Positions 38,639 through 42,371 of a stretch of 64,000 bases of DNA are shown in pieces. The position numbers and the translations under genes are program-made. Source of the stretch: Bacillus sp. F19 (lineage in GTDB: Bacteria > Bacillota > Bacilli > Bacillales > Bacillaceae); contig CP085710.1 of the NCBI GenBank assembly GCA_023823795.1, positions 1,700,001 to 1,764,000 of the forward strand, written 5' to 3'. The stretch's first letter is position 1, and each line of letters begins with the position of its first letter. The notes below the pieces were generated by a model that worked only from the letters and a program-made list of their open reading frames with translations, was not told the origin of the DNA and made no database searches.

Positions 38639-38842
38639 ATGACAATAGGAGCACAAGTTAAGCAAACACTAGCTGGATTAAAAAGCGCCCAGGCCAGTTT
38701 AGAAACCTTTGCACTTGGTACCGAAAATCCGCAAGCAAAACAGCTTTACCAACAAGCAGCTCAACAAACTCAATCTATTGTTGATAGTATCTCTCCACGT
38801 CTTCAGCAAATTGAACAAGAAGAACCTCAATACAAAGAATAG
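38639..38842 (+). CDS. DUF1657 protein (spoVA-2mob operon, gene 1)
   Basis: 67 residues, helical. The DUF1657 pattern LKSAQASLETFALGTENPQAKQLY at about 14-37 is clear, with a Glu/Gln-rich C-terminus. RBS GGAAGAAGG. It opens a run of seven same-strand genes with the order known from spoVA-2mob heat-resistance operons. A hairpin with a T-run follows, so the first gene may be made in excess over the rest. Molecular role unknown. Confidence 0.85.
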   Translation: MTIGAQVKQTLAGLKSAQASLETFALGTENPQAKQLYQQAAQQTQSIVDSISPRLQQIEQEEPQYKE

Positions 38843-38853
38843 AACGATATCCA

Positions 38854-38885
38854 GAAGGTTGGTTGATTCAATCAACCTTTTTTTA
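38854..38885 (+). terminator. Intercistronic terminator-like hairpin
   Basis: AAGGTTGGTTGA / TTCAATCAACCTT stem followed by TTTTTT. It separates the first DUF1657 gene from the lipoprotein gene and could cause partial termination. Confidence 0.8.
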
Positions 38886-38922
38886 TACTTCAATTTATGG
38901 ATAGAAACAGAGGGGTGATCAC

Positions 38923-39396
38923 ATGAGAAATAAGATGAAGATATTAAACATTTGTCTTATTATACTAGCGGTTATCGGACTTGGCTCAGGATGTGCTGGA
39001 AATCAGAATCGCTTTGCCAATAACAATGATGATGCAAATATCGTAAAGGTACATACAAGCAAGCCAATCGATCAAACTATTTCCAATCAAGCAAAAGAAA
39101 AAGTAATAAAAAAAGAGGAGATTTCGGGAGTTAAGGCTGTGAATACAGATAAGGAGCTGTTATTGGCGGTAAAAGTCAACCAATTTGATCGGTTTCGATT
39201 AAAGAGTATCAAAAAGAAACTGAAATCAGACTTAGAAAAAATGCATTCCGAGTATAAAATCTTCGTTTCCACTGATCAAAAAATTTATTTGGAACTGGAA
39301 CAATTAGAACAAAAACTGCAAAAAGATCATACACAAATGAAATCATTAAAAAAAGATTTCGATAAAATTAAAAGTCTTATGAAGGAAAAAGCATGA
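38923..39396 (+). CDS. YhcN/YlaJ-type sporulation lipoprotein (gene 2)
   Basis: 157 residues: a signal peptide with lipobox LGSGC, then a YhcN/YlaJ-like domain (KEEISGVKAVNTDKELLLAVKV) and a Lys/Glu-rich helical C-terminus. Proteins of this family sit in the spore inner membrane. RBS AGAGGGGTGA. Second gene of the spoVA-2mob-like operon; a homologous gene occupies the same position in known copies. Confidence 0.83.
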   Translation: MRNKMKILNICLIILAVIGLGSGCAGNQNRFANNNDDANIVKVHTSKPIDQTISNQAKEKVIKKEEISGVKAVNTDKELLLAVKVNQFDRFRLKSIKKKLKSDLEKMHSEYKIFVSTDQKIYLELEQLEQKLQKDHTQMKSLKKDFDKIKSLMKEKA

Positions 39397-39412
39397 TGAA
39401 AGAGGGGCAGGC

Positions 39413-39892
39413 ATGTCAAATAAGCAAAAGAAACAATTAACACCTGTACAACAAGAGTATCAAACCCTTGAAAAGCAGCTGGAAACAAAAAGACCGGTTT
39501 TTAAAAATTGTATAAAGGCATTTTTAACGGGTGGATTCATTTGCTTGGTCGGCCAGTGTATTCAAATGTTTTATATTTATTATTTTGATTTTACTGACCA
39601 AACAGCTGGAAATCCGACGGTTGGTACTTTAATTTTCATCTCTATGCTTCTTACAGGTTTTGGAGTCTATGATCGAATCGCACAATTTGGAGGGGCTGGT
39701 TCTGCTGTTCCGGTTACCGGCTTCGGAAACGCAGTTATATCCGCAGCCATTGAACATCGAACAGAAGGGTTTGTACTAGGTGTAGGCGGTAATATGTTTA
39801 AATTAGCTGGCTCTGTCATCTTGTTCGGTACTTTTTCCGCGTTTGTGATTGCTACAATCAAAACCATTCTTATCCAGTGGGGTGGTTTGTAA
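39413..39892 (+). CDS. spoVAC: Stage V sporulation protein SpoVAC (2mob type)
   Basis: 159 residues with about four membrane helices, including KAFLTGGFICLVGQCIQMFY and GNAVISAAIEHRTEGFVLGVGGNMFKLAGSVI. SpoVAC forms a mechanosensitive channel in the spore inner membrane for dipicolinic acid movement. RBS AGAGGGGCAGGC. The stop overlaps the SpoVAD start by 1 bp. Confidence 0.92.
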   Translation: MSNKQKKQLTPVQQEYQTLEKQLETKRPVFKNCIKAFLTGGFICLVGQCIQMFYIYYFDFTDQTAGNPTVGTLIFISMLLTGFGVYDRIAQFGGAGSAVPVTGFGNAVISAAIEHRTEGFVLGVGGNMFKLAGSVILFGTFSAFVIATIKTILIQWGGL

Positions 39893-40902: not shown

Positions 40903-40907
40903 CGATT

Positions 40908-41258
40908 ATGATTTTCTTTTGGGCTTTTGTCGTAGGCGGTTTGATTTGCGTAGTTGGTCAAATTATGTTTGATGTGTTTAAACTCACACCTGCTCACACA
41001 TTAAGTACATTCGTTGTCATCGGTGCCCTTCTTGATGGATTTGGTTTATATGAACCGTTTATCGATTTTGCAGGAGCAGGAGCTACGGTTCCGATTACGA
41101 GTTTCGGAAATTCCCTTGTGCATGGCGCGATGGAAGAAGCTGAAAAACATGGATTAGTCGGTGTAATATCGGGAATGTTTGAAGTGACAAGTGCCGGTAT
41201 TTCTGCTGCCATCATTTTCGGGATGATTGGCGCCATGCTTTTTAAACCTAAAGGATAA
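40908..41258 (+). CDS. spoVAE: Stage V sporulation protein SpoVAE/SpoVAEb (2mob type)
   Basis: 116 residues, three or four membrane helices, with VPITSFGNSLVHGAMEEA and the C-terminal VTSAGISAAIIFGMIGAML. It completes the C-D-E core of the dipicolinic acid channel. Starts 5 bp after spoVAD and is followed after 12 bp by a second DUF1657 gene. Confidence 0.92.
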   Translation: MIFFWAFVVGGLICVVGQIMFDVFKLTPAHTLSTFVVIGALLDGFGLYEPFIDFAGAGATVPITSFGNSLVHGAMEEAEKHGLVGVISGMFEVTSAGISAAIIFGMIGAMLFKPKG

Positions 41259-41270
41259 GGAGGAACCGTA

Positions 41271-41477
41271 ATGACCATCGCATCAGATGTGAAACAATGT
41301 TTTGCTCAGCTAAAAGGTATTGAGGCTGATCTATCAAGTTTAGCGTTACGGACTCAAGCTAATGAATCAAAACGTACATTACATGAAACCATGATGATCA
41401 TGCATGAAATATCGGCAGATTTAAAAAAGCGAATTGGGGAATTGGAACGAGAAGAGTCTCAATATAAAGGTTTTTAG
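41271..41477 (+). CDS. Second DUF1657 protein (gene 6)
   Basis: 68 residues. It aligns with the first gene of the operon in length and pattern (QCFAQLKGIEADLSSLALRTQANESKRTLHETM) and ends with REESQYKGF, like the EEPQYKE end of gene 1. The canonical FALGTE motif is changed to LALRTQ. RBS AAGGAGGA. Role unknown. Confidence 0.85.
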   Translation: MTIASDVKQCFAQLKGIEADLSSLALRTQANESKRTLHETMMIMHEISADLKKRIGELEREESQYKGF

Positions 41478-41510
41478 GATAAACCATTCTTAAACAGGAG
41501 GTGTTAAACA

Positions 41511-42371
41511 GTGCCTGAGTGGTTAGATGTAGTAGTACGGTCATTCTTATTTGTAGTTGTCTTATTTCTACTTACAAAATGGTTAGGTAAAAAGCAGCTT
41601 TCCGAACTTTCATTTTTTGAATATGTCACTGGCATTACAATTGGAAGTATTGCAGGAGAAGTTGCTATGGGGCTTGAAAAGAACATGTTTCACGGGATAA
41701 TCGGAATCTCGATCTTCGCTTTAATGCCTTTTATAGCAGGTTTGATTTCTTTAAAAAGCAAAGTCTTTCGCGATTTTATAGAAGGGAAAGCAACCATTTT
41801 TATTAAAGATGGGAAAATCATGGAAGAAAACTTGAAAAAGGAAAAATACACAACTGATGAGCTGCTGGAATTGCTTCGAAATAAGGATGTCTTCCAGGTG
41901 GCTGATGTGGAATTTGCGTTATTAGAGCCGACCGGGGAATTAAGTGTTCTGTTAAAAAAAGAAAATCAGCCTTTAACTCCGAAAGATGTAAACTTGAATG
42001 TTGCTTCCATTAAGGAACCCCAGACCGTCATTATGGATGGAGAAATCTTAGATGAGCCGCTGTCTACTAGTGGCCGAAGTAGAAATTGGCTGAAAACTGA
42101 ACTGGAAAAACTGGGAGTTACCATTGAAAATGTTTTTCTTGGACAGGTAGATTCTTACGGACAATTAACCGTTGACCTCTTTGATGATAAACTTCAGGTT
42201 CCAACTCCTCAAGAAAAACCTTTAGTTTTCGCCGCAATGAAAAAATGTCAGGCGGATTTAGAGCTGTTTGCCCTTGGAACTGAATCAACGGAGGCAAAGC
42301 AGATGTATAGTGAAAATAGTGAAAAATTACAAGAAGCTCTAGAAAAAGTAAGACCTATTTTAAAAAGTTAA
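41511..42371 (+). CDS. DUF421 (YetF-like) membrane protein with C-terminal DUF1657 (gene 7)
   Basis: 286 residues from a GTG with AGGAGGTG upstream. Three N-terminal membrane helices and a DUF421 cytoplasmic domain (KATIFIKDGKIMEENLKKEKYTTDELLELLR) span 1-230. The last 50 residues (AMKKCQADLELFALGTEST..AKQMY) are a third DUF1657 module fused in frame. YetF/YrbG-type proteins and this fusion are typical of spoVA-2mob operons, and the DUF421 gene has been linked to heat resistance of spores. Last gene of the operon. Confidence 0.87.
   Translation: MPEWLDVVVRSFLFVVVLFLLTKWLGKKQLSELSFFEYVTGITIGSIAGEVAMGLEKNMFHGIIGISIFALMPFIAGLISLKSKVFRDFIEGKATIFIKDGKIMEENLKKEKYTTDELLELLRNKDVFQVADVEFALLEPTGELSVLLKKENQPLTPKDVNLNVASIKEPQTVIMDGEILDEPLSTSGRSRNWLKTELEKLGVTIENVFLGQVDSYGQLTVDLFDDKLQVPTPQEKPLVFAAMKKCQADLELFALGTESTEAKQMYSENSEKLQEALEKVRPILKS

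What the first reader, a model, noticed from the sequence alone, without database searches (positions are those of the whole stretch)
38639..42371. spoVA-2mob-type operon linked to extreme spore heat resistance
The order DUF1657, YhcN/YlaJ lipoprotein, SpoVAC, SpoVAD, SpoVAE, DUF1657, DUF421 is that of the mobile spoVA-2mob operon known to raise wet-heat resistance of Bacillus spores. Here no transposon genes flank it; it sits between cspD-like and PAP2 genes in an otherwise que/ykv-like region, so it may be ancestral or long domesticated.
Basis: partly seen in the sequence, partly recalled or inferred. Interest (0 to 1): 0.75.

Follow-up and report, generated by a model that had tools for sequence, protein, structure and literature searches.

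The report
Second spore operon, acquired then settled
This is a complete second copy of a spore operon of a kind tied, in other species, to loading the spore core and surviving heat; it looks acquired by horizontal transfer and since settled in the chromosome, and its relatives show a terminator-like hairpin inside the operon and partly dismantled natural versions.

Summary
Window 38639-42371 encodes DUF1657, YhcN/YlaJ, SpoVAC, SpoVAD, SpoVAEb, DUF1657 and DUF421+DUF1657 ('2Duf') in spoVA2mob order. It is a second spoVA operon; another lies beside sigF. It is a chromosomal spoVA2 operon, a published kind, but not spoVA2mob itself: no Tn3 gene, terminal repeat or cls was found beside it. It is probably not ancestral to the genus: of 8 genomes 3 hold it at this site; 5 have the site empty, 2 of them with a close copy elsewhere. 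Synonymous divergence equals the core where the site is shared and is far below it where not. A 91%-identical copy in Metabacillus idriensis lies among Tn1546-type remnants. Likely function, by homology: DPA import by SpoVAC/D/Eb with a YhcN cap, and membrane stabilisation by 2Duf. Heat resistance was not tested. Two findings may be new: a terminator-like hairpin after the first gene in 37 of 46 loci, rare at the other junctions; and ten relatives that lack intact YhcN and SpoVAEb but keep both DUF1657 genes and 2Duf, with two draft genomes whose spoVA genes are split between two loci.

The parts
38228..38428 (+). cold-shock protein gene, left neighbour of the inserted block
   Evidence: CSD 109 bits; start chosen by eye at the ATG behind a ribosome-binding-like site
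38639..38842 (+). D1, first DUF1657 protein, 67 aa
38853..38881 (+). terminator-like hairpin with T run between D1 and YhcN
38923..39396 (+). YhcN/YlaJ lipoprotein (NJ2-type cap)
   Evidence: PF09580 32.9 bits; cap role from PMC13059800
39413..39892 (+). SpoVAC
   Evidence: PF03862 132.8 bits
39892..40902 (+). SpoVAD (a GTG start at 39877 is also possible)
   Evidence: PF07451 520.4 bits; PDB 3lm6, 3lma
40908..41258 (+). SpoVAEb
   Evidence: PF03862 131.3 bits
41271..41477 (+). D2, second DUF1657 protein, 68 aa
41511..42371 (+). 2Duf: DUF421 (YetF fold) plus C-terminal DUF1657, GTG start
   Evidence: residues 82-204 match YetF 3c6f
42678..43190 (+). PAP2 family phosphatase, inside the same inserted block
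   Evidence: PF01569 67.9 bits; block absent in 5 of 8 genus genomes
38490..43351 (.). block present at this site in 3 of 8 genus genomes (bounds approximate)

Best explanation
A chromosomal spoVA2 operon of the spoVA2mob type in a host of the Metabacillus idriensis group. Shown here: it is a second spoVA operon; its genes are intact and under purifying selection; its site is empty in 5 of 8 genus genomes; it has diverged with the core genome in the three species that share the site; the copies at other sites in the genus are too similar to have descended with the core. Inferred: it entered the ancestor of the three species as cargo of mobile DNA, probably a Tn1546-type transposon or a plasmid, and the mobile parts were lost or never came along. 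Inferred from published work on relatives: SpoVAC and SpoVAEb form an inner-membrane channel, SpoVAD plugs it from the core side and the YhcN lipoprotein caps it, importing DPA into the forespore; 2Duf, a YetF-fold membrane protein, stabilises the inner membrane, with the small DUF1657 proteins as likely partners. Inferred: the hairpin after the first gene lowers transcription of genes 2-7 relative to the first DUF1657 gene.
For: Domains and intact frames. Second operon. Empty site in 5 of 8. Synonymous divergence, operon against 16 core genes: 0.096/0.108 (G006), 0.158/0.157 (G001), 0.260/0.514 (G002), 0.301/1.177 (G004). dN/dS 0.04-0.34 by gene, pooled over four pairs. Tn1546-type remnants beside the 91%-identical copy of M. 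idriensis. The same operon inside a Tn3-type element on a plasmid. Trees put the window copy in a five-row clade with G001, G002, G004 and G006. DPA import by spoVA2 and role of NJ2: PMC13059800. 2Duf as main heat factor: PMC10126465.
Against: No transposon trace at the window itself, so the vehicle is a guess. A sigma-G promoter was not found: 54% of shuffles scored as well. The operon is a mosaic: D1 of G002 has dS 1.16, above the core, and 2Duf between G000 and G006 has dN/dS 0.82. No expression, DPA or heat data for this host.
Confidence: 0.75

Rival explanations
1. The operon is ancestral to the genus at this site and was lost there in the lineages that now look empty; the copies elsewhere moved within their genomes.
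For: 5 of 8 genomes still hold a copy somewhere.
Against: G005 and G002 lie between the occupied species and G004 by SpoVAD identity, so several losses are needed; operon dS to G004 is a quarter of the core's. A highly constrained operon cannot explain low synonymous divergence, as the sigF-linked spoVA genes in the same pair have dS 1.04.
Confidence: 0.08
2. It is spoVA2mob proper, a recent Tn1546 insertion that still confers extreme heat resistance.
For: Gene order, and 76% DNA identity to the plasmid transposon copy.
Against: No transposase, resolvase, cls or 38-bp repeat at the site; the same insertion is shared by three species with core-like divergence.
Confidence: 0.04
3. The operon only adds DPA import capacity and does not raise heat resistance beyond normal.
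For: In B. anthracis the spoVA2 operon is the main DPA importer of an ordinary spore (PMC13059800, abstract and passages). SpoVAC and SpoVAD are the most constrained genes.
Against: 2Duf is intact and conserved and is held to be the heat factor of spoVA2mob (PMC10126465, passages).
Confidence: 0.3
4. The hairpin after D1 is not a terminator but protects the 3' end of a processed D1 message.
For: A stem-loop alone cannot tell. In A163 spores both DUF1657 proteins gave many peptides (16-27 against 8 for SpoVAD), although the second has no such hairpin (PMC8005191, Table 1 passage).
Against: The scan asks for a T run right behind the stem and finds it in 37 of 46.
Confidence: 0.3

Closest known systems
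spoVA2mob operon of Tn1546-type transposons (PMC5133452, passages); sequence stand-in: B. velezensis plasmid pDMB05-2 (L112, L115)
   Same: Same seven genes in the same order; 76% DNA identity; 2Duf 79%, SpoVAD 87%, SpoVAC 86%, SpoVAEb 86%, YhcN 58%; a terminator-like hairpin after D1 in both
   Different: No Tn3 transposase, resolvase, terminal repeats, cls or yetF beside it; PAP2 instead
chromosomal spoVA2 (5A2) locus of the Bacillus cereus group (PMC13059800, PMC10126465: passages and sections)
   Same: Seven genes, core proteins about half identical to the spoVA1 paralogues, YhcN-type lipoprotein included, second to a sigF-linked spoVA
   Different: Different host and site; no sequence of that group was fetched, so identity was not measured
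operon copy of Metabacillus idriensis DSM 19097 (L020, L087)
   Same: 91% DNA identity over the operon; same clade
   Different: Different site, near a broken Tn3 transposase end, cls, yetF and decayed element-end sequence

Membership tests
spoVA2mob (Tn1546-borne) | Gene order DUF1657, YhcN/YlaJ, spoVAC, spoVAD, spoVAEb, DUF1657, DUF421+DUF1657 | tested here: met
spoVA2mob (Tn1546-borne) | Carried on a Tn3/Tn1546-type element (transposase, resolvase) | tested here: not met
   no relative of either protein in the window
spoVA2mob (Tn1546-borne) | Terminal 38-bp inverted repeats | tested here: not met
   best match 22 of 38, as in shuffles
spoVA2mob (Tn1546-borne) | Sigma-G promoter before the first gene | tested here: inconclusive
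   54% of shuffles scored as well; consensus recalled
spoVA2mob (Tn1546-borne) | Raises spore wet-heat resistance | not testable with these tools
   no phenotype data
chromosomal spoVA2 (5A2) operon | Present in addition to a sigF-linked spoVA1 | tested here: met
chromosomal spoVA2 (5A2) operon | C, D, Eb about half identical to spoVA1 paralogues | tested here: met
   SpoVAD 48% within the genome; SpoVAC 59%, SpoVAEb 66% against the G005 paralogues
chromosomal spoVA2 (5A2) operon | YhcN/YlaJ-type lipoprotein (NJ2) in the operon | tested here: met
   PF09580 32.9 bits, cut-off 26.3
chromosomal spoVA2 (5A2) operon | Needed for DPA import | not testable with these tools
   no phenotype data
2Duf | DUF421 plus C-terminal DUF1657 in one protein of about 286 aa | tested here: met

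The most novel reading that the evidence does not exclude
spoVA2 is a two-tier, separable system. A conserved terminator after the first gene makes the first DUF1657 protein in excess over the transporter. The transporter can be split in nature: in two genomes the only SpoVAD found lies in the 2Duf operon while the only SpoVAEb found, next to a YhcN gene, lies in another spoVA locus, so a working complex would have to be built from two loci. In this operon layout YhcN and SpoVAEb are lost or kept as a pair, and the DUF1657-DUF1657-2Duf trio outlives the transporter.
Probability: 0.5. Interest if true: 0.65.

Novelty: new member of a known kind. Interest (0 to 1): 0.5.

Why it matters
The operon is a known kind. 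The comparison adds three usable things. First, 2Duf relatives nearer to a transposon-borne copy (79% here, up to 83% in others, against the pDMB05-2 protein) than the 33.9-60.8% given for Bacilli in PMC10126465 Table 2. Second, natural operons that keep 2Duf and both DUF1657 genes without an intact SpoVA channel; [quoted passage not shown] Third, a conserved hairpin that predicts unequal expression inside what is described as one operon. The three species with the occupied site also show such an operon after it has settled.

Tried and rejected
Ancestral inheritance in the genus was tested by empty-site comparison and divergence and is disfavoured. Repeats at the block's edges: none convincing. 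A sigma-G promoter could not be shown. A Pfam scan of 62 of the 90 open frames listed for six loci returned only 25 of 106 families; no transposase was among those shown, which proves nothing. A phage search with SpoVAD gave 4 unannotated records at 38-42% identity and was not followed. The alignment fold of the hairpin region gave only 5 pairs and -2.3 kcal/mol because loops differ in length. For the window alone the hairpin stretch folds with z -1.83 under dinucleotide shuffles, 14 of 200 shuffles doing as well. L029 is filed as Sphingomonas but groups with Priestia, so probably contamination; L022 is filed as B. subtilis but its 2Duf and SpoVAD equal Robertmurraya's. labels the small DUF1657 genes 'yetF', an artefact of my script; those calls follow. 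No structure prediction or fold search was run. One literature search with five terms found no paper.
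Full report
WHAT IS THERE. Window 38639-42371 (+) holds seven intact genes: DUF1657 (D1), YhcN/YlaJ lipoprotein, SpoVAC, SpoVAD, SpoVAEb, DUF1657 (D2) and a DUF421 protein that also ends in a DUF1657 domain, called 2Duf in print. Its residues 82-204 match the solved YetF chain 3c6f; SpoVAD matches 3lm6 and 3lma. The window is G000:C1:1700001-1764000 of a 5.59-Mb genome in two contigs.

A SECOND OPERON. The genome has four SpoVAC/SpoVAEB-family matches, two here and two at 3.43 Mb. The frames at 3.43 Mb read as spoIIAA, spoIIAB, sigF, spoVAA to spoVAF and lysA (apart from SpoVAC, SpoVAD and SpoVAEb these names are recalled from sequence and order). The two SpoVAD proteins are 48% identical, and 8 of 8 genus genomes have the 3.43-Mb type at 89-100%. 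The genome has 8 DUF421 and 4 DUF1657 matches.

NOT ANCESTRAL, BUT SETTLED. A 2Duf relative at 93% or more occurs in 5 of 8 (G000, G001, G002, G004, G006); G003, G005 and G007 have only matches of 34% or less. All 8 have queF. The operon lies beside it in G000, G001 and G006. In the other five the homology stops about 38480-38490 and resumes at 43352 (G002, G004, G005) or 43493 (G003, G007), with 63-208 unaligned bases between. The missing block includes PAP2. In G002 and G004 the copy lies elsewhere and the homology covers 38583-42370 and 38569-42372, the operon alone. Synonymous divergence from G000, operon against 16 pooled core genes: 0.096 and 0.108 (G006), 0.158 and 0.157 (G001), 0.260 and 0.514 (G002), 0.301 and 1.177 (G004). 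So descent fits the core where the site is shared and not elsewhere. Against a simple story, single genes differ: D1 of G002 has dS 1.16, above the core. dN/dS pooled over four pairs is 0.04 (SpoVAC), 0.04 (SpoVAD), 0.07 (SpoVAEb), 0.12 (D2), 0.18 (D1), 0.25 (2Duf) and 0.34 (YhcN); the single pair G000-G006 gives 0.82 for 2Duf.

LINK TO THE MOBILE ELEMENT. Of plasmid records 106 match 2Duf and 16 cover at least 80% of it. I opened three of the 16. B. velezensis pDMB05-2 has a Tn3 transposase, a recombinase, the seven genes, a phospholipase-D-like gene and a YetF-domain gene between 43-nt inverted repeats with 12,569 nt between; this fits the spoVA2mob element as described in PMC5133452 (passages). 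Metabacillus sp. B2-18 pB218 and Priestia megaterium pBMV_2 also have the seven genes. Against the pDMB05-2 copy the window is 76% identical in DNA and 79% (2Duf), 87% (SpoVAD) and 58% (YhcN) in protein; Robertmurraya yapensis L021 is 95% in DNA, with its genes at 97-100% except 2Duf at 80%, a mosaic. At the window no relative of the Tn3 transposase, resolvase, cls, IS21 or IS6 queries was found, and the best repeat match is 22 of 38, as in shuffles. In M. idriensis the operon lies near a broken Tn3 transposase end, cls (84%), yetF (82%) and a 127-bp stretch like the element's end; its repeat matches are 26 and 24 of 38, against 23 at most in ten shuffles of that locus, but shuffles of another locus reached 26. 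The window genome has, 1.37 Mb away, a broken Tn3 transposase (73-83% in pieces), a resolvase (94%) and repeat-like ends, with no match to the spoVA, DUF1657 or 2Duf queries. In quick trees of 2Duf and SpoVAD the window copy falls in a five-row clade with G001, G002, G004 and G006 (support 98 and 97).

AN INTERNAL HAIRPIN. A scan shows a terminator-like hairpin at 38853-38881 with a T run, between D1 and YhcN. My own scan of 90 nt after each stop codon in 48 chosen loci (41 of the 65, three plasmid regions, three genus copies and the window; 46 have D1) finds one after D1 in 37, against 0.8 in shuffles. After the other genes: YhcN 0 of 34, SpoVAC 0 of 41, SpoVAD 1 of 46, SpoVAEb 0 of 44, D2 3 of 48, 2Duf 3 of 48. 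With 120 nt and 60 matches, distant layouts included, the count was 43 of 60. The background behind long open frames of the window is 11 of 46. Of 46 stretches after D1, 40 fold with z below -2 against mononucleotide shuffles, and stems differ on both sides between some lineages. Against: 9 of 46 lack it by this pattern, the loci are related, and with dinucleotide shuffles the window stretch has z -1.83. 'Terminator' does not occur in the main text of PMC5133452, PMC13059800 or PMC10126465; a search for spoVA with 'intrinsic terminator' listed one paper, not opened; the first spoVA2mob paper was not held. In A163 spores D2 and its homologue gave 27 and 17 peptides, D1 and its homologue 17 and 16, SpoVAD 8, and 2Duf and SpoVAEb were not found (PMC8005191, passages; assignment of D2 by accession). 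That fits plentiful DUF1657 proteins, but D2 has no hairpin, so it is no proof.

NATURAL REDUCTION. The 65 loci found with 2Duf sort as follows: 28 full operons; 2 with SpoVAC in two frames (L021, L022; L022 also ends at a contig end); 10 reduced; 1 SpoVAD-SpoVAEb-D2-2Duf (L038); 6 of a Sutcliffiella type; 7 with 2Duf first; 1 SpoVAC-SpoVAD-2Duf (L065); 5 with 2Duf and no spoVA match in about 10 kb each side (L060, L062, L063, L066, L074); 1 cut off 160 bases upstream (L064); 4 without intact 2Duf (L057, L079, L081, L082). The 10 reduced loci (L023, L027, L033, L034, L035, L039, L042, L044, L051, L056) lack intact YhcN and SpoVAEb and keep D1 and D2; 5 keep SpoVAC and SpoVAD, 3 only SpoVAD, 2 only remnants. 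Keeping 2Duf is by construction of the search, keeping D1 and D2 is not. Among the 41 loci of this layout both YhcN and SpoVAEb are intact in 30, neither in 10, one in 1 (L038). In the 2Duf-first group SpoVAEb occurs without YhcN nearby in 6 of 7, so the pairing is not general. The reduced state, L038 counted in, needs at least 7 changes on the 2Duf tree and 8 on the SpoVAD tree. D1, D2 and 2Duf keep pN/pS 0.13-0.34 in six chosen pairs that include a reduced locus.

SPLIT TRANSPORTERS. Thirteen genomes, mostly of reduced loci, were searched for SpoVAD and SpoVAC/SpoVAEB. In Paraliobacillus quinghaiensis the only SpoVAC and SpoVAD found are in the 2Duf operon and the only SpoVAEb is beside a YhcN gene elsewhere. 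In Peribacillus tepidiphilus the only intact SpoVAD is in the 2Duf operon, while SpoVAC and SpoVAEb flank a SpoVAD remnant elsewhere, again beside YhcN. Domibacillus epiphyticus has YhcN, SpoVAC and SpoVAEb without SpoVAD at one locus, but a further SpoVAC and two SpoVAD elsewhere. In the other ten a second locus with SpoVAC, SpoVAD and SpoVAEb is listed. The remaining 48 genomes were searched too, but I did not work through the places, and the SpoVAC/SpoVAEB listing was cut short. These are drafts; missed copies cannot be excluded.

HOW IT LIKELY WORKS. In B. anthracis, SpoVA2 C, D and Eb form a complex with the YhcN-type lipoprotein NJ2; loss of the operon lowers DPA and heat resistance, and an Eb2 change bypasses NJ2 (PMC13059800: outline, abstract, discussion, passages). 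The joint loss of YhcN and SpoVAEb seen here fits that link. 2Duf is believed to be the main heat factor of spoVA2mob (PMC10126465, passages and one section), and its YetF relatives affect inner-membrane fluidity (PMC12548441, abstract). A spoVA2 operon was also described as acquired in Clostridium sporogenes (PMC5376575, passages). These roles are carried over by homology; none is shown for this host.

VERDICT. The internal hairpin and the natural reduction and splitting are the parts that may be new, as far as the open-licence library searched goes.

Noticed in passing
window 54087-57763: A GerA/GerB/GerC-type germinant-receptor operon lies about 12 kb downstream of the spoVA2 operon.
   Followed up: no
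window 42678-43190; L084, L085; L088 9097-9609; L101 7340-7852; L043 20641-20856: The PAP2 gene has a relative at 78% or more in the same 5 of 8 genus genomes that hold spoVA2 and only matches of 33% or less in the 3 that do not. It also lies beside the second, divergent operon of M. idriensis and near an operon of Bacillus massiliglaciei: a possible lipid-enzyme fellow traveller, as cls is in the transposon.
   Followed up: partly
L102 4852-5221 (G000:C1 about 2.365 Mb): A second PAP2 copy of the host, broken over several frames.
   Followed up: no
L116 7081-12718 (G000:C1 about 3.115-3.121 Mb): Broken Tn1546-type element of the host with resolvase and repeat-like ends but no spoVA cargo found.
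   Followed up: partly
L018 5849-6055 and 6803-7198 (G000:C1 about 2.393-2.394 Mb): An orphan DUF1657 gene close to D1, beside a broken YetF-like gene.
   Followed up: partly
L021 and L022: Operons almost identical to the transposon copy except 2Duf at 80%, which suggests that 2Duf is exchanged by recombination.
   Followed up: no
window 38113-38476: Rfam cspA thermoregulator match (79.7 bits, gathering 78) over the cold-shock gene upstream of the operon.
   Followed up: no
window 14602-15563, 31133-31594, 47473-49250: Tandem arrays with units of 52, 52 (or 156) and 216 bases, 18.5, 8.9 and 8.2 copies; the last lies 5 kb downstream of the operon and also shows in G006 by repeated alignment.
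   Followed up: no
window 23478-24308: Transposase with integrase-core and HTH_21 domains, IS3-like (family name recalled), 14 kb upstream of the operon.
   Followed up: no
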